A stretch of 64,000 nucleotides of DNA, from assembly GCA_949317995.1 (NCBI GenBank), contig OX439044.1, positions 24,314,733 through 24,378,732 on the forward strand, given 5' to 3'. This DNA comes from Acholoe squamosa (Eukaryota > Annelida > Polychaeta > Phyllodocida > Polynoidae). Below the pieces are notes generated by a model that ran no database searches, was not told the origin of the DNA, and saw nothing but the letters and a program-made list of their open reading frames with translations. Shown here piece after piece: positions 792 through 31,991 of this stretch (the first letter of the stretch is position 1; the number at the start of each line of letters is the position of its first letter). The position numbers and the translations under genes were made by a program.

Positions 792-1564
792 TTTAAACTA
801 TTACTGATGAATATCTCCTTGTTCACGATGTCAATCTGTATATAGTGGTCTGAAGTATCTAGTAATAAGACTTTCTTCACATGTCCCATGTGTATAATAA
901 TGGGTAAAGTGCCCATTGTGTTTTATCATAAATCATCCTAATGTCACGCTTAATATTCATCATTTATGTAGTGATGTCACCAATGTATGACATCCCTATA
1001 CTCCATGTTTCCATTCTTGGACACATTTTACAAAGTCCGGCCAATACTGTTAGAAGTAAACCCATTCTGTTCATGGCGGACCAATGTACTTCCATCGATA
1101 CCCTGGTACTATTCTAATATATGTACGTTCTGTGCTGTAAACCCTCTGTGTAAAAGGTATATCCTGATTCTGCCATTAGCATACCAGTGGTTTAAGCTTG
1201 CACTAGTCCCAACTTTATGATTATCTGTCATTCTTTGTAATTGGATATTAATCTACAGATGCCAAATTTTCCCTAACTCTTTTGTTGTTAAGAAAGGACA
1301 CACTAGCCCAAGCCAGTGGCAAATTCTAGAGCTGTTGGTCAATGCTTACTCAGTTAAGAATCACCAAACAGCGTTAAAGTATAAAAAACGTGTTTAAGCT
1401 TAAACAGAGCCATAAAGCCCTACATGTTGAACAATAGGTTTTATATGTAGCATGTGCTTTAATTTGACCCATAAATAATTGTTATGTGTAAAGGGTAAAG
1501 TAGAAATAGCTAGGACATGTCTCACACCCTCATTGTGTGCACCTATTAGGCCACCATGATACAT
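792..1564. other. No feature recognised
   Basis: AT-rich stretch without a recognised exon, repeat end or RNA gene. Confidence 0.4.
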
Positions 1565-1811
1565 GTACCAGCATATAAGGCGCACCTCCAACTTTTGCAG
1601 ACACTCGATGGCCCAGTAGGGGTCTATCCACATGCCTTAAGCTAAAGACAAACAGCGCATTTCCCGATGCACGGTCCTATGCGTCAGGAAACGCTTGATA
1701 GGGGTTTTATATGATGCCCTCCCCAGTACATTGGCATGGAAACGGCCTTCCGCGTACATGCGACGCACTATGTCTGTTTTCCGCATTATACGTGAGGTAT
1801 CACAGTAGTAG
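1565..1811. mobile_element. Degraded copy of the GTAATCTCCCGCG MITE family
   Basis: The left part has CATATAAGGCGCACC and the right part ATTATACGTGAGGTATCAC followed by AGTA. Both match the ends and subterminal motif of the intact copies at 468-690 and 7061-7283, but with several mismatches, so this is an older copy. Confidence 0.45.
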
Positions 1812-3311
1812 AAAGAAAAATAGATTTCATCAAATCCTATTGCCATGTACTATTTTCAAATGCAGTATTGGATTAAATGTAGCTTTAAAATACTTCATAC
1901 ATCACCCCTTCAATTAACAAATTTTAGTTCATGTAATCCATATTCACATTCAAAATGTATTTCAGTCTCCAGTTGCTTAATGAATCTGGTTGCGAAATTT
2001 AAAGATGAACATACCCATCCTCATACATCAGACACTAATTCTAAACGTGAAGCTGGGTGGCTGTTGCTTGTGTTTGATAATAGTGCGATATAAGACTGTT
2101 AACAATGAGACTAATAATTGTGACTGTTTTTAGCTTTTTCCGGAATTTAGGAGCAAATAAATTAGCCTATAACCGTTATATCTATAATATATACCTGGTA
2201 AATATCATTTCTCGATTAAAAAAAAAATGCCTATATCACTAATGAAATACAAACATGAAACCATGAGACAATGATACCTGTATGCTTATACTGTGGCATG
2301 TTGTTGTTTGTCCTGTTTATATATTGTGTCCACTGAGGACGACTGTTTTCTCTAATTGATTTTTGTGAGAGTACCGAGTGAGTCACAACCAAGTGTCATG
2401 TTATGTTATTGTACCGCAAGACAATACATGGGGGAGGGGGGGGGTGCTCAAAAAATGTTATGTCAGTAAAGTGTAAAAAGGAGATAGTACGATATATTAG
2501 CATGGTATGGTTCACTATTCCTTGACCAATGTTTGCCCTTGAGGAAACCCAAAGCGGTATACATAGGCCTAGTGTCATTCTATGTACCTGTCTCTTCCTT
2601 TCACAAATTGAATATATCTAAGCATTTCAGCTGTACAATATGTAGACTGCGTACCTAAAAAGAAAAGAAGAGATTGAAGGCCAAGAGTCAAGGTTGCCGA
2701 TTTTCGTCAATGGGAAGAGCTATAATTGTCCTTGTATGGTTGTTGACTTGCTGAGAAATAAAGTTATTTTATTGAATGAACTCCTTTTGTCTTAATTGAA
2801 TCGTATATTATATTCCAGGTATCTGATAATATATATCTCTTCAATTAGTGATTACATTTTTAATGAAATTTATATCTGAACGCTTGATGTGGAGTCTGGG
2901 GAGTAACCTTTGCACAGCTGATTTAAAATTTGCCCAGGTAGCCGTGAGGCGCTATCAGTTGGAATGTGGGGAAGATCAGCCGAACACATCTAGATCTTTA
3001 AAGATTTTCTTTTGTAGCATTCCTGGGAAAACACGACAATGAGAGCATTTTCTATTGACAATTCAATTTCTCGAGGTTCACAAGAATCTCTCCATAGTGA
3101 CAGTTTCCAACAATTGAAGGGACAGAGTCCGACAATCAAAAGGACTACCAGTTTAGACAGATTAAAGTAAATTTCCCTGTTGATCATAATCATTAATTAT
3201 TAATTGCTCCTTACAAAATGAAACAAATGGAAGTCCATGTGGCTATGAAGTGAGGAAGTGATTTATTTTCGATGTTTCACCGTGTCAATTCCCCAAATAT
3301 AAACGTAACCT
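1812..3311. other. No gene recognised
   Basis: About 1.5 kb of AT-rich sequence with a poly-G run near 2431-2445. No exon with convincing splice sites or protein similarity was recognised on either strand. Confidence 0.4.
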
Positions 3312-13350: not shown

Positions 13351-13609
13351 AGATTGCCCCAAGTCACAAATTTCATACCCACCATGGTAGATGAACACTT
13401 GTTAAAAGAAACAGGGAAGCTGTGGTACAGAGGGATGACACCTTCAGGTCCCTGCAGTGATGCTTACAGTTTGCAGCCAGACCTTTAGTCAATGCACTGG
13501 ACCACCTGGGCAGCAGCGAAACAGTTAATCCCAAACAACTGGTCACAAGCATGTCTGATTCTTTGAAGCCAAGTCCTCATGGAAAACCAATGACATCAGG
13601 CGCAATAAT

Positions 13610-14023
13610 GTGTATTCAGGCTTAAAGGGTGTGGGGCTAGAGGTAGCACAGAAACCAGAAAACCACAAAAGCTTTAAATATCTGCTCGGAGAAGATGCCA
13701 GAGAGCAGATTGTGGTTAGACAGAAAGAGGAAGAAGCCCTACGCGATGTTGTGGCTGCCCCCAGGTCATGGAACCGCCGCCAGGGAAACTACAGGGGCGG
13801 CCAGGCCAGCAGCCACCACAACAAGAGTGGTTCCAGCCACAAACACACAGCAGGTCATCCCAACTACAATCAGGACCGCAGCTGCCACCAGGGGGTGCCG
13901 AACCGCCAGCAGGACTACCGGTCCAGCAGCAACACCTCCAGGGGTGGCAAGTGGGGCAAGCAGTCCAAACAGAACCCCTACAAAGGTGGCAACAAATCCA
14001 ACAACAAAGATAACAACAAATAA
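13610..14023 (+). pseudogene. Gag-like basic region of the DIRS-like fossil
   Basis: The reading frame ends in a tail very rich in Gly, Asn, Ser, Arg and Lys (GGKWGKQSKQNPYKGG), the composition seen at the end of DIRS gag-like proteins. It lies directly before the reverse transcriptase. No zinc knuckle is visible. Identification rests on position and composition. Confidence 0.5.
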
Positions 14024-14189
14024 ATGTAAGTCTTTCATTGTGAATACACCTGATACAGCCAAGCTAACCGAAACACCTGAAAAGAATCCCATAAAAAAAC
14101 AGGCCTTTTCAGCAGGTGGTTTGGGTAGGCAGGCTAACAAATGGCATACATTCACCAAAGACAGATGGGTGCTGGTTATGGTGAAGGGC

Positions 14190-14970
14190 TTGACCATAGA
14201 TCTACACACTATCCCAGTACAGTCAGAGATCCCTGACTCAGCATCTATTAACCCAGTTACAGATGCTCAGTTGGATACACAAATACAGGATATGTTGAGT
14301 AAAGGCATCATAGAGCCTGCAGAACATAATGCGAGGGCATTTGTTTCACACATGTTTTTAAGACCTAAAACAGATGGCACTTTCAGACCTATTTTGAACC
14401 TCTCAGAACTAAAAGAGTTCACAGTCTACAAACCCTTCAAAATGGATCATCTCGTGTCTGTCATGCATAATTTGCCTCAACACTCCTCTATGAGTTCTGT
14501 AGATATTACATCAGCCTACTTCACCCTACCCATTAAGGAAAGGGACAGGGATTTCTTGCAATTCCAGTTCCATTGTAAACGGTATAGGTATACATGCCTA
14601 CCAAATGGATACTCACCAGTGCCAAGACTGTTTACACATATCATGAAGGCACTGCTTTCACATCTGAGAGTACATTACAGCGTAAATTTGGTATTTTACA
14701 TTGATGACACACTTATTTTTGGAACAATCTGTAAAAGACACTCTCAGAATCCTACAAGAAGCAGGCTTCACAATTAACTTCAGAAAATCAGTCTTGACCC
14801 TGGCACAGTCCATTGAATACCTGGGTTTCACCATTGATTCAACCACACTGACATTACACATACCACCTAAGAAAGTGACAATATTGATGGCAATGGCACT
14901 TGACATCCTGAAAGTCAGGAGGCTGTCAATCAGACAGTTCGCAGCAGTCATAGGAAAACTGGCAGCCACT
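14190..14970 (+). pseudogene. Reverse transcriptase part of the DIRS-like fossil
   Basis: DIRS/gypsy-type RT motifs are visible in order: QDMLSKGIIEPAE, a KTDGTFRPILNL segment, SSVDITSAYFTLPI with the first catalytic Asp, and FYIDDTLIF with the YIDD active-site box, followed by an IEYLGFTIDS segment. The match is with DIRS-type RT, not LINE RT. The copy is broken and ends where a MITE begins at 14978. Confidence 0.75.
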
Positions 14971-14977
14971 GAACCTG

Positions 14978-15280
14978 CACTGTAAAAACAGTGTTTAGGG
15001 TTTGAACACCAGTGTTTAAGACTTAAACACTTGTTTAAACACTTATTTGTCCCACTTTTCTAAACGCTTCTTTAGTGCTAAACGCGTTCAATTTTAAACG
15101 TGTTTAACTACAAAGTGTTTAACCAAGTGTTTAAATGCTAAACACTTAAACACTTCAGTGTTTAGATGTTTAAGTACAAGTGTGCAAAAGCTAAACACCT
15201 AAACACTTCAAGTGTTTAGGTGTTTAAATGCGGGTGTTGAGAAAATTTGGTGTGTATCTTTAAACACCTTTTTTGCAGTG
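14978..15280. mobile_element. 303-bp MITE with CACTGYAAAAA ends inside the DIRS fossil
   Basis: The left end CACTGTAAAAACAGTGTTTA is mirrored by the complement of the right end TAAACACCTTTTTTGCAGTG. The interior is built from many copies of GTGTTTA and TTAAACAC in both orientations. No coding sequence. It interrupts the retroelement between its RT and RNase H regions. The superfamily is undetermined (hAT- or CACTA-like ends are possible). Confidence 0.65.
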
Positions 15281-15568
15281 TGGAAATGACAGGGCCAAGG
15301 TCCATACCAAACTATGGGTGTGGACCACTAAAATCGACATGGCGACATGGGCTACTTAAGGCTTAATGACATGGGACATGAACAATTTCTTAAAATTGAC
15401 AGGGTGACATGATCATTTCTTAAAATTGACATGGGGACATTTTTTAAAATCGACATGTGACATGGGGGACCCCCCATCCACACCCCCCAAACTCCTCCAG
15501 AGAGTTAGATATTGGGCCCTCACAAAGTCATTAGATAACTATGATGTAACAATGTACCTAAATGATTG

Positions 15569-15928
15569 TGTAGGCTTGTGGAGCGATTTATATGGTTTAA
15601 GCTCCCTATTCGAGAGGGCAGGTCAGTCAGTGCGATTACCACCGGTAGGACTAGAGGTTGCTTCGATCTCTGGCCACTATGGGGTGGTGGCAGCACTGGT
15701 CGTCGCTGCTCCAGTCCCTACCTGGGACCGCGTAGGGAGTTCCTGAAGTCGGCTTCTGGCTACGACCAGAGCAACACCTGCTGAGCATCAAGCTATCCTT
15801 ATAGCATTACTTCGAACTCATGTGACTCCTGAATAAATATGTGCTGGTTGCACTAACCCGAGCTAACTTGCCAGGTTTTACCATATCTCGAACTCAACCG
15901 AAGTTAAATAAGAACTCGAACCATTACA
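15569..15928 (+). mobile_element. Solo LTR (360 bp) inside the DIRS fossil
   Basis: The insert begins TGTAGGC and ends TTACA, the TG/CA termini of LTR elements, and is flanked on both sides by the 4-bp direct repeat ATTG (15565-15568 and 15929-15932). An AATAAA lies near its 3' part (about 15833), as expected for the R region. No internal region remains, so it is a solo LTR left by recombination. It is younger than the DIRS copy. The family (4-bp duplication: BEL/Pao or Ty3-like) is not resolved. Confidence 0.55.
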
Positions 15929-16182
15929 ATTGCATCAAACAGTGGCTGTCACATCTCCCTATTGCCTCAGTGCTTTATGCAGAAATTCGCCCACAGGTGT
16001 CAATCTACACAAACTCTTCTAAAACAGGGTGGGGTTGCTATTGGCAACAAGATGATTTTAAGTTACAAGAACTGCATATTAATATTCTTGAATTGAAGGC
16101 AGTTCTCATGGCTCTGAAGAAACTTCAACGTCGAGTGAAGGGGCAACGTGTAAATTTGTTCATCAACAAGACAACAGCCCTA

Positions 16183-16298
16183 CCCAGTCAACAAAAAATG
16201 TTATTTAATGTGAAAAAAAACGTTTTTAACATTTTAAAACGTTTGACTATGATAAAGAGCCATAGGGAAATGTTCTAAAATGTTTTTTGTTGACTGGG
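16183..16298. mobile_element. 116-bp TA-flanked MITE
   Basis: Inverted ends CCCAGTCAACAAAAAA and TTTTTTGTTGACTGGG, with TA at 16181-16182 and 16299-16300. The interior is rich in AACGTTTTT. It interrupts the RNase H region of the DIRS-like fossil. Related AACGTTTT-rich sequence surrounds the Harbinger element at 35846-41830 and occurs at 43205-43315. Confidence 0.7.
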
Positions 16299-16522
16299 TA
16301 TGCTGTATCAGAAAAGGTGGTTCTCTGGGTTCCATACCATGTGATGAGGTCACACAGTGCATATACACTTATGCATGGAAACACAGAATCAGATGGCGGC
16401 GCAGGGTTGAGCGGTTGAAAATTGGACTGTAGAATTTCTACAAATTTACTAGGATATACACATAGGGACGTTGTCAAACTTGACATACTACTTCATAAAA
16501 GTTCCAACCAGATTTATACTGA

Positions 16523-17889
16523 ATGTCAAATGCTAAAGACAAGCTTCAAACTAGGAGGAGAGGAAAAGAAATTGAAATGCTCTCACCGGAAGCCACTTTG
16601 AAGGATGTCATCGCTGCCGTCAACTCTATTGACAGGAGAGTCAAAACAGTGGAGGAACTTCAACTTGAGATGAAAACTAGTCTCGATGGGTTCAAGGATT
16701 CTATGGATACCTTAAATAAGACCTCTACAACCATTAACACTACCTTGGATGGACTAACAACTAGGCTAACTTCCACAGAAGGAACATTAAATTCTGTATC
16801 CACCACTGTCAAAGAGACTGGAGACGCCATGACGGCACACACACAAAATATCCAAGCGCAAACAGACCTGCTATTAAAGCATGCACAGAGATTTGAGAAA
16901 ATAGATGAAGACATCAAGAGGAAAATTGTCGTGGTAAAAGGCCTAGAGGAATCCGACAATGAAAACTGGAAAAGATTAACCAACTGTTCAGGGATGTGCA
17001 CGCGGATTTTGGCATCGAAAGTGTTCAAAGTTGTAGTCGCGCAGGAACACCCGTCACACGAAACCAAGATGGCGGCGCCCACGATGTAAATAAGAAGACC
17101 TATCGACCGATTAAAATTGTGTTCAACAATGTATACACCAAAGCGAAACTGATGAAACTCCTCAAAAACTTAAAAGGCAAGTTTCTATATAAGCATGTAT
17201 CTATTGGGGATGAACTTGGAGAAATGGAGCAAAGGGAATTCAATGATTTCCGTGCCATGCACTATCTGGCGAAACGACAGGGGTACAACACTCAGTTGAG
17301 ACAGCGTAGAATTATTATAGATAAGAAGCCCTTCGAGCACAGTCAACTTCACCAGCTACCATACCAAGACCTGAACATGCAAAAAGCCAATGAAGCCGAA
17401 ACACCAGATGGTCTAATGTTCAAATCACACCACCATAAACTGTCTAATCTTTTCCATTGCCAAAAATCATACAGAGGAGTGGAATACAACAGCTCAGAAC
17501 AGGCTTATCAAGTGTCCAAGGCCCAAGCTTGTGGTCAGAACAACCTAGTACTATCCTTAAAGAAGCTAGAAGACCCGGTACAAATAATGTATGAAGCAAG
17601 GAAAATCAGACCTACAGCAGAATGGAACAAGATGGCTGCCGCGGTCATGCAAGAGATCAACGAGCAGAAATTTTCCATACCATATATGAGGGACTATCTA
17701 ATCTCTACTGGAGACAAAAACTTGTATGAGGCCAGCTTCAACCCTATATGGGGGGTGAAAATGCACTTCGGGCAAGCAAACCAATGTACGACTGGAAATG
17801 TTAAGGGTGAGAACCTGATGGGACAAATTCTTCAAAAAATTCGTGTGCAACTTACCAGAGTACATGGAAATCCGGATGAAAATCAATAA
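16523..17889 (+). CDS. LINE ORF1 protein: coiled coil + RRM-like + NADAR (one frameshift)
   Basis: The N-terminal part (16523 to about 16975) is a Leu/Thr-rich heptad region typical of LINE ORF1 trimerisation coils, running into KIVVVKGLEESDNENWK, the start of an L1-type RRM. The protein continues in another frame (ORF 16996-17889, 297 aa), so one single-base frameshift lies around 16965-16985. Residues 1-115 of that frame finish the RRM (RPIKIVFNN) and a C-terminal domain like L1 ORF1p. Residues about 142-287 (17419-17856) form a NADAR domain with the family blocks KLSNLF (148-153), NSSEQAYQVSKA (165-176), ISTGD (236-240), NLYEAS (242-247), NPIWGV (249-254) and a closing GENLMGQIL. NADAR proteins include YbiA-type N-glycosidases and ADP-ribosyl-guanine hydrolases. 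ORF1p normally coats LINE RNA; a catalytic role here is inference. Confidence 0.8.
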
Positions 17890-18153
17890 ATATCTTCTTG
17901 TACATTATATAGCTTAGTTCCTAATCGATATAATGCCATAGTCCTTGAAATTTAACTGCCGACTCATACATCGAACACCATGGGTAGCCAGAAGAGCTGT
18001 AAGCCCGTGGAGGGGGGGGTATGTATATTTTTATAACGCATGGTTTACAATGACCTGGATTGATGTAGCATGCACTAGTAGAATGATCATATATGTATAC
18101 ATTGTGCAGCATGTCGACTATATCGAGTTTAAATGTAATTACCAGATACAAAT

Positions 18154-20985
18154 ATGTCTTTAAAAAATAAATTCAGGAAAGGTTTCTCAATAATACATAT
18201 GAATGCCAGGAGTGTGAGAAATAAATTTACAAAAATCAAAGAGGAGCTGAATAACAATTTCATAGATATTATATTATTTTCTGAGACCTGGTTGAATGAA
18301 ATGGATTGTAGTAATTTATATAGCTTCCCAAGGTATAATCTCTTTCATCAAGACCGTATCAGTATATATAGAGGAGGAGGACTTTGTGCATATGTCGATG
18401 AAAGTCTATCATGTTCAGTAGATAGATTCAAAGCCTTAAACAGGACTAATGAAAATATAGAAGTTCAATGGTTACTATCAGCTAAAGGTGCAAATAAAAA
18501 ATGTATTGTATGTAATATCTATAGACCACCTTCGGGAAACCTTATGGAATTCTGTAATACCATGCGAGCACTACTATTACAAATAGACAACTTGGACAGA
18601 TATGATATTTTTATCCTTGGGGATTTCAATGTAAATGTACTAACTAATACCCCAGATAAGCAGCTACTTATAGAAACCTTTGATCATTTTAACTTAGTAC
18701 AACTTGTTAACAAGGTCACAACCACATCAGGTACCAACACGTGTATAGACTTGATTTTCTCAAATTGTGATACCATTACCTCCAGTGGTCCATTGAACAT
18801 ACACCTGTCTGACCACCTACCGGTACATATCTTAAAAGCCCAAATACACACAAAGAAAAATTTTAGAACCTTTCTTGGAAGATCATATAATAAACTTAAT
18901 ATGGAAATATTTTATTTAGACTTAGAAAATTGTAATTGGGACTATTTTAACGAATCAAATGACCCAAATGTTTGCTGGTCTATACTAGAAAACATGATAA
19001 AAAGAATGTTAGATCTGCAATGTCCGGTAAAAAGTTTCAAGGTGGTAGACAAACCTAGCCCATGGATGTCTAATGAGCTGTTTGAAAAGATAAACGACAA
19101 AAATGCATTATTAAATTTAGCCAGGAAAAATTTGGATATCATATTGTGGCATAGAGCTAGAGAGAGTCGAAACCAGGTTAATAGAGACATTGAATTGGCT
19201 AAGGAAACATATTATTCCAACCTATCTGAGGTATTTAAGAAAGATTCTAAGAAATTTTGGAGTACTATTAAGGATATCTTACCTTCTAATAAATCTAATA
19301 GCAAGTCAATCATGTTAACTGACGAAAACGGCCATGTAATTTCAATTAATGATACTTCCACTTATATAAATAATTTTTTCGCAGAAATTGGTCCTAGGCT
19401 GGCGGAACAACATCAAACCATATTTAATTTTAAGGGTACGAGATGTGAAGTGGATATGCCCGAGATGAACTTTACAGATGAGGAAATTATGAAATGCTTA
19501 TCTGACATAGACATATCTAAGTCATCTGCTATTGACTATTTATCTACTGATATATTCAAAAAAACTATGTTAAAGTTCCCTCAAAAATTTATAAAAATCA
19601 TTAATTTGGTTACGATTACTGGCCAAATCCCTGATAGTTGGAAAATTGCTACGGTGACTCCTCTCCCCAAAGGAGGGGACCCATCCAATGTCTCTAACCT
19701 TAGACCGATAAGTGTTCTACCGGTACCGGGAAAAATCCTAGAAAGACTCATACATAACAAACTGAGTGAACATTTAGAAAGATTTGATATTTTAACGAAA
19801 AACCAAGGTGGATACCAAAAATGTAAATCTACACTAGACTCTATCTCAGTATTAGTTGATGATGTATTAAAAAATAGAAATGAAGGTAATATAACAATGG
19901 CTGCCTTTATTGATATAAAAAAAGCATTTGATTCTGTTAATCATTTAATATTATTAAAGAAATTAGAACAATACGGAGTCAGAAATAGAAATCTAACCTT
20001 AATAGAGAATTATTTATCAAGGAGACAGCAATGTGCTATAGCCAACCATATACGTTCTGATAAAGCAAGTCTAACATGTGGCGTACCACAGGGCTCAATT
20101 TTGGGTCCTTTGTTCTTCTTATTGTATATTAATGATTGCATTTCTGACAATGATGTACACAAAACTTTGTTATACGCAGATGACTCTGTACTGTATGTAT
20201 CCGGAAAAAACTTAGACGCTTTAACTAATCAGTTGACTATTGCACTTAATTCCTTCTCTCTCTGGTCTTCAGCCAACAAACTTACAATGAATGAAACCAA
20301 GACGAAAATAATGACCTTTGCTTCAGCAGTTAAATTGAAGAAAATACAAAAACCTAAGATTGTCCTTAATGGTAAAACTTTAATGAATGTTCAATCATAC
20401 AAATACTTAGGGGTCACCCTTGACCAAGAAATGAATTTTAATATGTATATGAGAAATGTTATCAAGAGTGTTCGGTTCAAATCATTAATTTTGTATAAAA
20501 CAAGAAAATATTTATCAACTGCAGCAAGAATAAGAATGTACAAAATGCATATAATACCAATTATTGATTACTGTGATATTTTATACAATGGAGCTAATGC
20601 TGATTTGTTACAAGTACTGCAAAGATTGCAAAATAAGTGTTTAAAAACCTGTCTAGATGTGCATGTACTGACCCCAACAGATTTTGTACATAGAGAAACA
20701 ATGAGTCCGAAACTTGAAGCTAGAAGACTACATCATATAAAAATGCTGGCTTATAAAAGATCCACTAAGGAAGAATATATTAAACCCACTGTTAGAATGA
20801 CAAGATTTTCAAGTGCTCCTGTATTAAATTATATGAAAATTAACTGCACAGCTTACTCAAAATCTCCTGAATGTCTATGTGCCCAAACGTGGAATAATTT
20901 AGAGACAGATATTAGAAATACTAGGGACAAGGATAAATTTAAAGCTTTATCAAAGAAATGTATGATGCAATCTATTGACATCTAA
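18154..20985 (+). CDS. LINE ORF2: endonuclease-reverse transcriptase (intact, 943 aa)
   Basis: The N-terminal apurinic-type endonuclease (about residues 10-230) shows HMNARSVRNKF, FSETWL, NIYRPP, LGDFNVN and SDHLPV, so the catalytic Asn, Glu, Asp and His are present. The reverse transcriptase (about 480-760) shows NLRPISVLPVPGKILERL, FIDIKKAFDSVNH, CGVPQGSILGPLFFLLYIND and the active-site YADDSVLY, then YKYLGVTLD. The C-terminal part (about 760-943) is the Arg/Lys-rich region ending in a TWNNLETDIRNTR segment typical of Jockey/CR1-group LINEs. No RNase H. The frame is uninterrupted over 2.8 kb, which argues for recent insertion. It starts 264 bp after ORF1; the start chosen is the first ATG, just before the endonuclease. 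Confidence 0.92.
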   Translation: MSLKNKFRKGFSIIHMNARSVRNKFTKIKEELNNNFIDIILFSETWLNEMDCSNLYSFPRYNLFHQDRISIYRGGGLCAYVDESLSCSVDRFKALNRTNENIEVQWLLSAKGANKKCIVCNIYRPPSGNLMEFCNTMRALLLQIDNLDRYDIFILGDFNVNVLTNTPDKQLLIETFDHFNLVQLVNKVTTTSGTNTCIDLIFSNCDTITSSGPLNIHLSDHLPVHILKAQIHTKKNFRTFLGRSYNKLNMEIFYLDLENCNWDYFNESNDPNVCWSILENMIKRMLDLQCPVKSFKVVDKPSPWMSNELFEKINDKNALLNLARKNLDIILWHRARESRNQVNRDIELAKETYYSNLSEVFKKDSKKFWSTIKDILPSNKSNSKSIMLTDENGHVISINDTSTYINNFFAEIGPRLAEQHQTIFNFKGTRCEVDMPEMNFTDEEIMKCLSDIDISKSSAIDYLSTDIFKKTMLKFPQKFIKIINLVTITGQIPDSWKIATVTPLPKGGDPSNVSNLRPISVLPVPGKILERLIHNKLSEHLERFDILTKNQGGYQKCKSTLDSISVLVDDVLKNRNEGNITMAAFIDIKKAFDSVNHLILLKKLEQYGVRNRNLTLIENYLSRRQQCAIANHIRSDKASLTCGVPQGSILGPLFFLLYINDCISDNDVHKTLLYADDSVLYVSGKNLDALTNQLTIALNSFSLWSSANKLTMNETKTKIMTFASAVKLKKIQKPKIVLNGKTLMNVQSYKYLGVTLDQEMNFNMYMRNVIKSVRFKSLILYKTRKYLSTAARIRMYKMHIIPIIDYCDILYNGANADLLQVLQRLQNKCLKTCLDVHVLTPTDFVHRETMSPKLEARRLHHIKMLAYKRSTKEEYIKPTVRMTRFSSAPVLNYMKINCTAYSKSPECLCAQTWNNLETDIRNTRDKDKFKALSKKCMMQSIDI

Positions 20986-21605
20986 AATATAATGTAAAAT
21001 AATTACACATATTGTCAAACCTACTTTTTAAGTGCCATAACAACGATCTATTTAAAGACCAATGATGACTGTCTACGTCGACTTGTCAATGCTAGCATAT
21101 TGGATAGTATCTGCGCATGCTGTATAAAATGAAACCATTCTTACGACTAGGGGGGGGGGCATTAATTACTATTTTGTACTTAAAGTAGATAGAAAGTGCC
21201 CCAAATTGTTCAAAATAATTGTTATTATACCGTATAATTGTATGAATATCTGTAATGATTTAAGTGGTCAGATCATAACAACATTTTCGAAATGACGATC
21301 TGGTCATGAACTGTTTGGTCATGTTATTATCAAAAAAGAATTACCTGGTAAAATAGGTAATCGTGTAACATATCAAAGAATGTGCTTAGGCAAGCTTATA
21401 TAGGCGTTATATTTCTAATACATAACGACAAAATACACTTGCATGTCTATGATTACATGATGTATGTACCACTAGACCAAATAAAGTTTAAAAATTTGTT
21501 CAAAAAAACCTTCAAGTTGTCCTACTGCCCTACTAAACTCAATGTGGAAGCAGACAGGACATCAAGAGCCTAATTACGGGGCTAATTATATGCATTATTT
21601 TTTAG

Positions 21606-21720: not shown

Positions 21721-22393
21721 GTAAGACCTGTATACATATATAATGTTGATTTGGAGTTTGTCTACCCCTCAAAGTTAGGCTTTATATGCGACATCAGTGT
21801 TTATTTCACCAGTAGATGTCAATCCACATACCTCTCCATATGAGAGGTGTCCATGTTCTGAATATGTCTATCATACTATCAGTCTACTTTTACAAGAGAT
21901 CTTTTCCAAAGTGAGATATCACACAATACATCCAGCTCTACAGGTGTCTGCTGATGTGTTATTGGATGATATTGATTAAGCTACAAATGAGTACATGTCC
22001 TGGCGTATATATAACATATCATCTCATTGTATAGTAAGACCCCCTGGTGGCAGAAATTAAGTACTCAAAAAGATGACCTTAGTTGATGACCTAAAGTCAT
22101 CTGCAGTGATGACTTTTTTTTTTATTGGCCAGGGCTTTCTGTGCAAGATTTGCTGAAAAAATAGGGGGTGCGCCCCTCCTTATAGGCCACGCCCCCTCCT
22201 TTTCCAGATCCTGGATCCGCCACTGGGCAATAGCCCAGGTTTTCCACATCCTTACCAAAGACAGTTGTAATATGTCATGACTGCATGGGGCTGATGTAGT
22301 TTAACAGATTTGAATGGTATAAATAATGACTGTACCGACACTTATTATTCATTGTTATTCATTCCTGTAAACCATCACCCTGCTAATTTACAG

Positions 22394-22911
22394 CCTACAG
22401 AACGGAAATCCCTATTGCAATCTATACATTATTATATATGTTACCAGCTAAATCGTGGTCAGAGGCCAACAAGACCTGTCACCAGGATTGGTCCAATCTG
22501 GTATCAGTACACAATGATGCAGAGAACGCCTTTCTGTTCATCCTGCGAACCCAACTCAAACCTGGCCAGGACGTGTGGACAGGACTATATGATGCTCAGG
22601 TGAGGACAGTGAAACAAAGGGCTTATTAAAGGCAGCTTAGGTATATATACGAGTGATGCGATTATGCATTATGCATTCTTTCATCTATATATGTATGATT
22701 ATTGGTATACTAAATTTTCGTTGCTTTCCTTTTTGACAGGAAGATGGCATTTACCATTGGTCTGACGGACGGTATGTCATGTACACACATTGGGCTAAAG
22801 ACCAGCCAAAAAGAGAGGAAGGTGGAGGATGTGTGACTATGGCTGATGGTGAAATGTGGTATGATAGAACCTGTGCAACTCCAAAAGCGTTCTTCTGTGA
22901 GACAACCAGAG
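22394..22911 (+). pseudogene. CTLD B, two exons
   Basis: Exon B1 (22394-22599) encodes KSWSEANKTCHQDWSNLVSV and ends VWTGLYDAQ, the alpha-helix and WIGL region of a CTLD. The phase-0 intron (GTGAGG...ACAG) is followed by B2 (22740-22911), EDGIYHWSDG to WYDRTCATPKAFFCE. The long-loop segment THWAKDQPKREEGGGC lacks the EPN and QPD triplets of classic mannose/galactose binders, so sugar binding is uncertain. The first dozen codons of B1 are in a different frame from the rest. Confidence 0.7.
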
Positions 22912-24150
22912 GTAAGTTAAGTATAAGTGAAATCTTCACCCTGATTGTATACTATGGAGGTTGTTCGTTATGTGATGGAAACCATCATCTCTGGCACCAT
23001 GCATTTAAGAGGTTTAATGTTTATAAACCATTTAGTTGTAAAACCATGAATCCTTCATCTATGAGTCAATAAAAGCTATTGTGGTAGAACTCATACTTGT
23101 ACCATGTATCTGTAAAGACTCCCCACTTAAATAATGTTTGGATAAAAATGTCTTTTTTTTCGAAAATGTTTATATGCTTTCAATGCTTTTTCAATATTTC
23201 TACACACGTTGATTAGTTACGACTTTTGTTATAAAGATCACATTCGTTTTCTCTCTATATATAAAAAAAAATCGTTTTTTTTTTTTACATAGTTTGGGGA
23301 AGGTTGCCCAATTTGGACACCCTAAGAACCATGCTCTATCTCATAATTTAATGCACTGCCTGGTACATATACATGATTGTTTCAGACTGGAATTTTTGGA
23401 TATGTTACAGTGGCAATCCAGGATTTGGAAAAGGATGGGGCGCGGCCCCGAAGGAGGCACCCTCTCTTTTTTTCCAAATTTTGAGGTCTTATACATGTTT
23501 ACAAAAGGAAATAAATTCTTAAATACAGACAAAAAGGAGGAGGCGTGTGCCCCCGCGTCCCCCGCCAAGTTCTGCCATTGCAATGTTAGGGGTTTGTTAT
23601 GTCATCATTTAGGTGTGTTTCATTTCCGGGTCAACTTTTAGAAAAGAAATTGTTGGCCTTGGAGTACTGATTGTATGAATTGAAGGTTTTCTTAAATTGG
23701 ACACTGCGTGGTCTCAAAATTGGACCAGTGACGGTTCCTAATTTGGGACCTTTCAAGGTTGTGCTTTAGGGTACCCTCAAAATTGATGTCGTGAAAGAAA
23801 AATATGTTCAACTTTGAGTGGTGTGGCGTGTCAATTAATGTCAGTCAGAAATGAGAGATCTCATTCTTTTATCAAGTCTGCTAGAGGTGGGAAGAAAATT
23901 GCTGGTCTAATAAAACAGCAGTTGCCTGAATTGGACCAAATTCTCAAATAAAATGGTGCAGAAATAGACTCCATAGAAAAAAACCCATCTGTATTGGCTA
24001 TCTCATATAGCCAATATAGATTAAATATTTGATTATCTATGAGTGCTAACGTAAGGTTACAATAAGCACTTAATTTTTTTCAAAAGTGAGAGGTCCAATG
24101 AAGAGGATGGATTTTATATTTGCTTTAATCCCTTAATTCTCACACTGCAG

Positions 24151-27375: not shown

Positions 27376-28690
27376 CAAGTTTATTGGCAGAAATCATACA
27401 TGTACGTTTTTCAGATCGGCCAAAACACGGCAACAGGAAAGAAATAGTGTAGCGCTCAATCAGGTTGTACAAAGTTACATCAGGCAGGCATCATTTAGGG
27501 TGTAGATCATTACGATATTACTAAAGACATAACTAAAGCCTCTTAGGGGCTGTATGTATCACCATGATTTGCACTAGTCGATTATCCGCAGGCAGCATGT
27601 ATATCACATCTTTCAAAAATAATTGCGTAGTCTATCAAGTGACCGTTATACACCAAATACATTCAGATTTTGTTCATGAATTCTTTCTTACTGCCTATCT
27701 GCTGAGTATTTGCATCCAATTTGTCCCAAAGGACACACCCCCTGTACAGTGGTGACTTATCATACGTCAAACACCTGGATCTGGATACCTTTAACTGTTT
27801 TTTAACATTGCCGCGCAAGTTCCTGGCAGGGAGTTTGACACAGTTTGGATCACAAGAAACATCATACATCATAGATAATAAGTTCTTATCACGTCTAACC
27901 TTTAGCATTTTCATGTAAGTTCTAACATGGAGATCGTATATAGATATATCTCGAGTATTAAAGATTCGAAGACATAACCGTAGGCAATGATTCTGCATAA
28001 GTTGTAAGCGGCCAACACTGGATTTAGGACCACTTTCATGTAGAAAACTTGCATGTTCCAGCACAGGTAGAACCATTTGTTTGTATAAGGTCAGACACAG
28101 CTTATTATCGACAAATTTCCTTAACTGTCTTAATTGGTACATCTTGTGGCGGAAACTAGATATTATCTTTTCGTTGTTTCTCCGAAAATTAAGACCACGA
28201 TCAATGATAACACCAAGGTAATTGAATTCATCAACCACTTCAAGGCGCTTACCATCCAGTTCAGCACTCATTATACTCAAATTGTGTCTGGCATTAAGTA
28301 AATCACTTGCACACCATAACAACTTTGTTTTTTCATTATTGATAGTAAGCTTGAACAATTTACACCATTTACTGATACTATCCAGATCAGACTGTAATTT
28401 CCTTAGTACATGATTGGGGTCGGTATCATTGACATAAATAGCGAGATCATCGGCGTACAAACAGAATTTGCAGGATTTTATAACCGATACTATACTATCA
28501 ATATATATTATAAATAATAACGGACCTAACACGGACCCTTGCGGGACGCCACACGTTACAGCCTCTTCAGCAGATACACGCCCATTGGCAGTAGCATATT
28601 GCTTTCTGTCCTTAAGATAAGAATTAAACCAAGATACACACTGTACAGATAAATGCAAATTCCTAAGCCTTCCTATAGGAGGAGGGAGTG
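27376..28690 (-). mobile_element. 5'-truncated LINE, reverse transcriptase C-terminal half
   Basis: The minus-strand ORF 27663-28658 (331 aa) begins in the RT palm: CGVPQGSVLGPLLFIIYIDS, YADDLAIYVND and FNYLGVIID, followed by a C-terminal region ending YRGCVLWDKLD. The 3' UTR runs down to about 27376 and contains CCAATAAAC. It differs clearly from the ORF2 at 18154-20985, so it is another LINE family. The 5' part (endonuclease, start of RT) is missing, the usual result of incomplete reverse transcription. The frame kept is open, so the copy is not ancient. Confidence 0.85.
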
Positions 28691-31093: not shown

Positions 31094-31991
31094 CAGTAAA
31101 ACTTCGTTATAAAGAGCTCTGATATAAGGAGACCTTGCTTATAAGGAGCACATTTTCCTAGCAGAAATCTTTCTCTATACATTTCTATAGTAATAAAACC
31201 CCCTTAGAACGAGGGAATTTTTCTATAAACTCTGATATAAGGAGGAAATTTGAGCAGGCCCTGGCCTCCCTTAGATGTTTACTGAGGTACACAGGGGCAG
31301 GGAGATGTCCTGTCAAAGGCCCTGGCCTCCCTTACATGTTCACAGTGGTACATAGGGGTAGGGAGTGGGGGGGGAGATGTCCTGTCACAGGCCCTGGCCT
31401 CCCTTACATGTTCACAGTGGTACATAGGGGTAGGGAGTGGGGGGGGGGGAGATGTCCTGTCACAGGCCCTGGCCTCCCTTACATGTTCACAGTGGTACAT
31501 AGGGGTAGGGAGTGGGGGGGGGGAGATGTCCTGTCACAGGCCCTGGCCTCCCTTACATGTTCACAGTGGCACATAGGAGTAGGGAGTGGGGGGGGGGAGA
31601 TGTCCTGTCACATGCCCTAGCCTCCCTGTATTTTCTTTGTTTAAACAAGTGAGATGTTCTGGGGACAGAATGAGGACCAATAATGTTCTGATGACTCCCC
31701 CCACCATACACCTTTAGTGCCCCTTATAGCATTTATAAGTAAAAGTTGGGGGTATCTTTTATGCAGAGATATTATACTATAAAAGAGTACTAAAGTGCCC
31801 AAAATCTAGCCTGATGTACACCCTATAGCTCTCACTCAAGTAGAGAGTGCATCTTACATGTGGGGTGTGCCTTTTATACAAAGTATTCCAGTATATCTCA
31901 CTAAGTAGGCTGGCCTTGCTTATAAGGAGACCTTGCTTATAAGGAGCAAAGTCCTCATTTCTGGGGTCCTCCTTATAACGAAGTTTTACTG
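31094..31991. mobile_element. Pogo/Tigger-like TA-flanked MITE with an internal minisatellite
   Basis: Ends CAGTAAAACTTCGTTATAA and the exact complement TTATAACGAAGTTTTACTG, with TA at 31092-31093 and 31992-31993. Subterminal GCTTATAAGGAGCA repeats occur on both sides. The CAGT-AAAC-TCGTTATAA end is typical of pogo-group Tc1/mariner elements. The interior (898 bp total) holds a 74-bp tandem array and no transposase. Confidence 0.8.
31259..31630. repeat. Tandem array, about 74-bp unit, five copies
   Basis: Units begin CCCTGGCCTCCCTTACATG at 31320, 31392, 31467 and 31541, with diverged edge copies at 31259 and 31615. Each contains GTTCACAGTGGTACATAGG and a variable G run, which explains the 72-75 bp spacing. 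The ORFs on both strands are repeat translations. Confidence 0.9.

What the first reader, a model, noticed from the sequence alone, without database searches (positions are those of the whole stretch)
17419..17856. NADAR domain fused to the ORF1 protein of a LINE
ORF1 of the LINE at about 16385-21375 has, after an L1-like coiled coil, RRM and C-terminal domain, a full NADAR domain: KLSNLF, NSSEQAYQVSKA, ISTGD, NLYEAS and NPIWGV are all present. Known NADAR proteins are N-glycosidases (YbiA type) or remove ADP-ribose from guanine in DNA or RNA. A retrotransposon RNA-binding protein carrying such an enzyme could counter host ADP-ribosylation of its nucleic acid or act on nucleotides (inference). 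I am not aware of a described LINE clade defined by this, but cannot search. It may also explain lineage-specific NADAR genes in invertebrate annotations.
Basis: partly seen in the sequence, partly recalled or inferred. Interest (0 to 1): 0.87.

Follow-up and report, generated by a model that had tools for sequence, protein, structure and literature searches.

The report
ADP-ribose-removing enzyme inside jumping genes
A jumping gene (LINE) in this animal genome makes an RNA-binding protein with a built-in NADAR domain, an enzyme type that can take ADP-ribose off guanine; the same fusion recurs in several quite different LINE families of this genome, hinting that these jumping genes need to undo a host modification.

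The parts
16391..21508 (+). LINE element (family A), full length apart from a small ORF1 frameshift
   Evidence: 12 of 29 family copies start their similarity at 16391 and 5 more at 16384-16388; 3 of 3 copies end at 21503-21508
16523..17089 (+). ORF1, 5' part (coiled coil and start of RRM), ATG at 16523; frame lost near 16966
   Evidence: intact copy L003 residues 1-156 align to 16499-16966 and residues 158-464 to 16966-17886
16963..17889 (+). ORF1, 3' part: rest of RRM, C-terminal domain, NADAR, stop
   Evidence: top PDB hits of the family RRM-CTD profile are LINE-1 ORF1p
17437..17853 (+). NADAR domain. Catalytic residue equivalents: Glu 17497-17499, Lys 17518-17520, Glu 17728-17730; also Trp 17623-17625 and Trp 17749-17751
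18139..20985 (+). ORF2 (948 aa open frame): AP-type endonuclease and reverse transcriptase
   Evidence: PF14529 39.7 bits, PF00078 121 bits; best database protein 72% identical over the RT region searched, 63% over ORF2
20986..21508 (+). 3' UTR of the LINE
   Evidence: last part matches three other copies at 80-81% up to 21503-21508

Best explanation
SHOWN: the window holds a member of a recently active LINE family whose ORF1 protein is coiled coil, L1-type RRM (weakly supported), C-terminal domain, then a complete YbiA-subfamily NADAR domain. The NADAR is a standing part of ORF1 kept by purifying selection, and the same module, with the same junction, is used by LINEs with quite different reverse transcriptases in this genome. 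INFERRED: an ancient ORF1 gained NADAR once (or very few times), and the RRM-CTD-NADAR module was inherited and swapped between LINE clades. INFERRED: the RRM/CTD holds the LINE RNA in the RNP, and the tethered NADAR hydrolyses ADP-ribose from guanine in LINE RNA, nascent cDNA or target DNA that host ADP-ribosyltransferases have modified, so that reverse transcription is not blocked.
Against: No activity or substrate data. Residues that hold the pyrophosphate vary among LINE families (R79-equivalent Arg in 30/60, K75-equivalent Lys in 26/60, W133-equivalent Trp in 44/60), so the ligand may not be plain ADP-ribose. The Lys-to-Arg state seen in family C kept activity in vitro in a bacterial NADAR but did not rescue cells from DarT1. 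E. coli YbiA acts on riboflavin intermediates (recounted in PMC11543638). I did not look for a guanine ADP-ribosyltransferase in this genome, and the organism is not identified. RRM-CTD homology of C with A and with F is not seen directly (hhalign 0.9% and 2.6%); C links only through B and E. Single origin is allowed but weakly supported: bootstrap 58 for the LINE against non-LINE split, and the AU test rejects none of three trees.
Confidence: 0.5

Rival explanations
1. NADAR acts on small molecules or RNA ends (free ADP-ribose derivatives, NAD-derived caps, nucleotide intermediates), helping RNA processing or removing host signals rather than cleaning guanine in nucleic acid.
For: E. coli YbiA cleaves riboflavin intermediates (recounted in PMC11543638). 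PMC9503650 proposes that viral NADARs might prefer soluble ADP-ribose derivatives or by-products of RNA processing, though elsewhere it favours macromolecular targets for those of animal RNA viruses (passages). The Ectocarpus paper suggests RNA processing (PMC12477816 passage). Phosphate-contact residues differ among families.
Against: Physical fusion to an RNA-binding type module in five families points to a nucleic-acid-tethered substrate; all NADARs tested in PMC11125620 were active on ADP-ribosyl-guanine DNA (passages).
Confidence: 0.27
2. NADAR is a reader, not an eraser: it binds ADP-ribose marks (for example at PARP-marked DNA breaks) to guide target-site choice or RNP localisation.
For: The ligand fold is conserved while several pyrophosphate contacts vary; PARP-marked nicks as LINE targets are recalled knowledge, not checked.
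Against: The glutamates that flank the distal ribose are among the most conserved positions, 60/60 and 58/60; a pure reader would not need both.
Confidence: 0.13
3. Packaging or structural remnant: the domain persists only as a folded C-terminal extension of ORF1p without ADP-ribose chemistry.
For: None specific; ORF1 domains of LINEs are often shuffled (PMC4120745 abstract).
Against: Catalytic residues are kept across families whose NADARs are about 20-30% identical; omega of NADAR equals that of RRM-CTD.
Confidence: 0.06
4. Chance: a host NADAR gene fragment lies beside or inside one LINE copy.
For: Two standalone NADAR genes exist in this genome (L031, L032).
Against: Same fusion in at least 150 listed places; 93 of 150 ORF2 starts have a listed NADAR a median 285 bp upstream; host genes fall with bacterial and viral NADARs, away from LINE NADARs.
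Confidence: 0.01

Closest known systems
NADAR in ORF1 of 'Tx1' LINEs of Pacific oyster and in Gypsy Pol of Ectocarpus (PMC12477816, Genome Biol 2025; passages seen)
   Same: A LINE ORF1 protein carrying a YbiA-family NADAR; family C here has an L1/Tx1-type ORF2
   Different: The window element has an L2/CR1-like ORF2; here six families of three ORF2 types, shared junction, catalytic residue table, selection and fold are shown; the passage on LINEs is one sentence plus a supplementary figure not seen
Type II (L1-type) ORF1 of L2 and CR1 lineage LINEs (Metcalfe & Casane 2014, PMC4120745; abstract and passages seen)
   Same: Coiled coil, RRM, CTD in an element with L2/CR1-like ORF2; reticulate ORF1 exchange between lineages
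   Different: No NADAR in the abstract or the passages I saw; here each ORF1 C-terminus aligned in families A, B, C, E and F adds NADAR after the CTD
DarT1-NADAR antitoxins and P. nicotianae NADAR (PMC11543638; section 12 and part 1 of section 13 read)
   Different: Fused to a retrotransposon ORF1 protein, no toxin partner seen in the element; Glu (YbiA type) not Asp (DarT1-linked type); several phosphate contacts changed
NADAR domains in polyproteins of animal RNA viruses (PMC9503650; passages seen)
   Same: Selfish RNA-copying elements of invertebrates that carry NADAR next to replication proteins
   Different: A different kind of element (LINE) and a different partner domain; no sequence comparison with those viruses was made here

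Membership tests
NADAR / YbiA superfamily | Pfam PF08719 above its gathering score | tested here: met
   77.7 bits vs 35.1; one member each of families A, B, C, D, E, F and of A3: 72.7-97.7 bits
NADAR / YbiA superfamily | YbiA-like fold | tested here: met
NADAR / YbiA superfamily | Catalytic residues E43, K50, E125 (P. nicotianae numbering) | tested here: met
   All three present in the window copy; in 60 LINE NADARs 58, 56 (+4 Arg) and 60
DarT1-linked (BC4488) NADAR | Asp in place of the last catalytic Glu | tested here: not met
   Glu in 60 of 60
NADAR / YbiA superfamily | Hydrolysis of guanine-linked ADP-ribose | not testable with these tools
   needs biochemistry
LINE (non-LTR retrotransposon) | AP endonuclease plus reverse transcriptase in ORF2 | tested here: met
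   PF14529 and PF00078
LINE (non-LTR retrotransposon) | Dispersed copies with variable 5' truncation | tested here: met
LINE (non-LTR retrotransposon) | Target-site duplication | tested here: inconclusive
   best shared word at the two ends 7 bp
L2/CR1 (Jockey superfamily) LINE | RT groups with named L2/CR1 elements | not testable with these tools
   no Repbase references held; the label rests on domain set, length, RT identity 32-39% among A, B, E, F and recalled motifs
Tx1/L1 LINE (window element) | RT closest to L1 ORF2p | tested here: inconclusive
   window ORF2 (all 948 aa) 57 bits to L1 ORF2p against 49 to R2; family C, a 311-aa RT piece alone, 138-141 bits to L1 against 40 to R2; no Tx1 reference was held
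Type II (L1-type) ORF1 | RRM plus CTD homologous to L1 ORF1p | tested here: inconclusive
   top four PDB hits are LINE-1 ORF1p, E 0.0064-0.041, mostly RRM region; Pfam PF02994 not hit in 13 of 13

The most novel reading that the evidence does not exclude
LINEs of this animal are in an arms race over nucleic-acid ADP-ribosylation: an ORF1-tethered guanine de-ADP-ribosylase, gained anciently and traded between LINE clades, lets them reverse-transcribe through host-installed ADP-ribosyl-guanine, implying an undescribed host defence that ADP-ribosylates retroelement RNA or cDNA.
Probability: 0.3. Interest if true: 0.9.

Novelty: new variant of a known kind. Interest (0 to 1): 0.66.

Why it matters
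If the LINE NADAR is active, a retrotransposon would carry its own eraser of nucleic-acid ADP-ribosylation, and one would expect a host enzyme that ADP-ribosylates guanine in retroelement nucleic acid. What animal NADARs do is open (PMC11125620 discussion passage); this gives a direct assay, retrotransposition with and without the catalytic glutamate. It also shows how hundreds, perhaps thousands (3224 first-look candidates of which only 150 were scored), of LINE copies could be mis-annotated as host NADAR genes.

Tried and rejected
Rejected: chance host fragment. Checked and rejected: that the nine ORF2 copies without upstream NADAR carry another ORF1. Their 1.7 kb upstream pieces hold no open frame longer than 108 aa (that one is the NADAR tail of L075), and match no ORF1 or NADAR read except the tails in L071 and L075. 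L073 and L074 are 99.4% identical throughout, one duplicated stretch, so these are eight independent loci. Not favoured: derivation from today's host NADAR genes L031/L032, which group with a Bacillus plasmid NADAR (support 96) and other viral and bacterial NADARs. Not decided: one capture or several. The LINE against non-LINE split has bootstrap 58, and the AU test rejects none of three trees (unconstrained 0.54, LINE NADARs together 0.56, all but D together 0.36). D (NADAR in mid-protein, no RRM seen) could be separate.

Led nowhere: both searches of the 5.8-billion-protein set with ORF1 pieces gave no hit. ORF1 and ORF2 scans of viral contigs found no LINE. Pattern scans with the 16-member LINE NADAR alignment could not be made. 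The family B NADAR finds ordinary phage NADARs at 31.9-35.9% in the 15 rows listed, of 613 records. Organism: egg lysin PF01303 and molluscan haemocyanin PF14830 gave nothing, but neither rang in any control genome, so this is uninformative; the Gibbula magus assembly was excluded by its longest scaffold (117.5 Mb in PMC10394393, against 127.1 Mb here). Of the unassigned ORFs of families B and F, three gave no Pfam hit and the one searched gave no convincing PDB hit (best E 0.011 over 45 residues).

Biases to know: the 18 copies used for omega came from the 30 best by protein score of the NADAR region and were kept because ORF1 was open, which lowers omega; RRM-CTD was only slightly part of that ranking and gives the same value. 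Omega for B (0.049 and 0.025) is from saturated synonymous sites. The AlphaFold2 alignment was made of NADARs, which favours that fold. Of the ORF2 hits without a listed NADAR, 12 of 57 were read; both lists are capped at 150.

Counting notes: the 26 copies with 463/464-aa frames (23 of family A, 3 of A2) and the 4 copies with both ORFs open were read by eye from the tables. The 60 NADARs are 30 A, 1 A2, 3 A3, 13 B, 3 C, 3 D, 2 E, 5 F; L035 (B, three stops) was left out. The tree keeps 47 sequences after near-duplicates and surplus copies were dropped; all families are in it. In one search, 10 pairs were compared; 9 are 96.7-99.9% identical over the best piece, and one B pair (L054, L059) is 75.9%.

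Papers: PMC12477816 passages; PMC9503650 passages; PMC11125620 passages; PMC11543638 passages, outline, section 12 and part 1 of section 13; PMC4120745 abstract and passages; PMC11209040 passages; PMC10394393 passages. Claim 'not in print': searches 'NADAR' + 'retrotransposon' (104 papers hold both, only 20 listed, most seem to be the author name Nadar; not opened except PMC12477816), 'NADAR domain' (15 papers), NADAR/LINE/ORF1/transposable (1 paper), YbiA + retrotransposon (the same paper), DUF1768 + transpos (2 papers that look unrelated in the listing). Only open-licence PubMed Central is held.

Full report

The element. ORF2 (18139-20985, 948 aa) has AP-type endonuclease and reverse transcriptase domains. 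Its nearest database protein is 72% identical over the RT region searched and 63% over ORF2. Of 29 other copies compared, 12 start their similarity exactly at window 16391, 5 more at 16384-16388, 6 later or in pieces, and 6 show no match there. Three of three copies end at 21503-21508. No target-site duplication beyond a shared 7-mer was found. The window copy's ORF1 is frameshifted: the intact 464-aa ORF1 of another copy maps to two frames that change at 16966.

Copies. The NADAR query matches at least 150 listed places, on each of contigs C1 to C18 of a 1.48 Gb genome (tallied; 2917 first-look candidates, 150 scored). I read 26 of them as 463/464-aa frames without a stop in the match. Four also have an ORF2 frame of 954 aa or more directly downstream (read by eye). 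Among 150 hits of the ORF2 start, 93 have a listed NADAR upstream, at a median gap of 285 bp. Twelve of the other 57 were read. In nine the similarity begins inside the NADAR (two) or after it (seven), and their 1.7 kb upstream holds no other open frame of more than 103 aa; two of the nine are one duplicated stretch. Three are a diverged subfamily (A3) with RRM-CTD-NADAR. None has an ORF1 without NADAR.

Not one family but many. A PF08719 search of the same genome gave 3224 first-look candidates. The best 150 were scored and all 150 pass the cut-off. The two strongest (183.8 and 169.3 bits) are standalone YbiA-like genes. I compared 60 LINE NADARs, which fall into A (window family, with A2 and A3), B, C, D, E and F. 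A, B, C, E and F have an RRM/CTD region directly before NADAR (two of the five F members were aligned). D has NADAR in the middle of a 729-aa frame, followed by an unassigned C-terminal region. Of ten pairs of copies compared within A3, B, C, D and F, nine are 96.7-99.9% identical over the best piece and one B pair is 75.9%, so several families look recently active.

ORF2 types. RT identity is 32-39% among A, B, E and F. The RTs of C and D are only 19-26% identical to these. The RT piece of C scores 138-141 bits with human L1 ORF2p against 40 with R2, and its endonuclease hits PF03372 best. The ORF2 part of D scores 92 bits with L1 against 72 with R2. The window element scores 57 against 49. 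B (L044) reaches only 36 bits with R2 and lists no L1. Thus A, B, E and F are called L2/CR1-like (from recalled motifs and domain set; no reference elements were held), C is L1/Tx1-type, and D is a third type.

A shared module. In an alignment of A, B, C, E and F the CTD ends in a leucine-proline (in some isoleucine- or methionine-proline) motif followed at the same place by NADAR; F has an insert there. Profile comparison of the RRM-CTD alone, NADAR left out, gives A-B 98.6%, A-E 97.3, A-F 75.6, B-C 96.4, B-E 99.0, B-F 97.2, C-E 92.2 and E-F 84.8. A-C (0.9) and C-F (2.6) are not seen. Five control pairs of RRM-CTD against NADAR are all about 1% or below. A profile of this region has the four LINE-1 ORF1p structures as its best PDB hits (E 0.0064 to 0.041), while Pfam names no such family in 13 of 13. 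Five of the six families thus carry one homologous ORF1 module with ORF2s of two types, which fits the reticulate ORF1 evolution described for Jockey-superfamily LINEs (PMC4120745). In a 47-sequence NADAR tree the unrooted ML topology keeps all LINE NADARs apart from the host, phage and bacterial ones, but support for that split is 58. None of the three trees tested is rejected (AU 0.54, 0.56, 0.36), so one origin is allowed, not shown.

Catalysis and selection. Using P. nicotianae numbering (PMC11543638), 60 LINE NADARs have E125 in 60, E43 in 58 (two family A copies have Lys), K50 in 56 with Arg in 4, and W89 in 60. Pyrophosphate contacts vary: R79 in 30, K75 in 26, W133 in 44. In the published work Asp in place of E125 marks the DarT1-linked subfamily, which is not the case here; K-to-R kept activity in vitro but did not rescue cells from DarT1. 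Over 18 copies with open ORF1 omega is 0.111 for NADAR, 0.113 for RRM-CTD and 0.217 for the coiled coil; over A+A2+A3 it is 0.083 for NADAR and 0.087 for RRM-CTD. Pairwise dN/dS over family A gives 0.086, 0.073 and 0.149. The copies were picked among the best-scoring ones with open frames, which biases these values down.

How it most likely works. Shown: a domain with the NADAR fold (predicted) and its reaction-centre residues is fused to the LINE ORF1 protein and kept by selection. Known elsewhere: NADARs hydrolyse ADP-ribose from guanine N2 in DNA, and guanine-N2 DNA ADP-ribosyltransferase activity exists in six edible clams. Inferred: ORF1p NADAR clears ADP-ribosyl-guanine from LINE RNA, cDNA or target DNA. 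The rivals are small-molecule or RNA-end processing, and ADP-ribose reading. Variation of the phosphate contacts leaves the exact ligand open.

Novelty. A 2025 paper on Ectocarpus TEs reports NADAR in Gypsy Pol and, from a Repbase query, in ORF1 of several oyster Tx1 LINE families (PMC12477816 passage). NADAR in a LINE ORF1 is therefore known in a sentence. I found no other such paper in five searches (of only 20 of 104 were listed). The parts that appear new are the non-Tx1 LINEs, the number of families in one genome, the shared junction, the conserved triad with varied phosphate contacts, and the evidence of purifying selection. The organism is not identified.

Noticed in passing
L036:2440-3237, L041:286-1017, L066:563-1282: LINE families B and F carry one or two extra ORFs of about 240-270 aa between ORF1 and ORF2, with a GGFNDL-like motif in B (looks SGNH/GDSL-like by eye); no Pfam hit for the three, and no convincing PDB hit for the one searched.
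   Followed up: partly
L039 (reverse strand, 729-aa frame at 895-3081): Family D LINE ORF1 has NADAR in the middle and a C-terminal region that looks SGNH-like by eye; Pfam shows only NADAR; its ORF2 is of another type.
   Followed up: partly
L031:1486-2151 (-), L032:1336-2076 (-): Two standalone YbiA-type NADAR genes, each one open frame, that group with a Bacillus plasmid NADAR (support 96) and viral NADARs; possibly gained from bacteria or viruses.
   Followed up: partly
window 13559-16278 and 21503-21600: The LINE seems inserted near a DIRS-like RT element; the 3' flank reads LNVEADRTSRA, like a DIRS RT/RNase H end (recalled motif).
   Followed up: no
window 27678-28622 (-): A second LINE RT fragment, 31% identical to the window ORF2 by tblastn and 41% to family E over 169 columns; no ORF1 or NADAR of the families read matches elsewhere in the window.
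   Followed up: partly
window 31255-31627: Tandem array of roughly 73 bp units, 92-96% alike.
   Followed up: no
window 22387-23072: Reading frames that look like C-type lectin exons (by eye).
   Followed up: no
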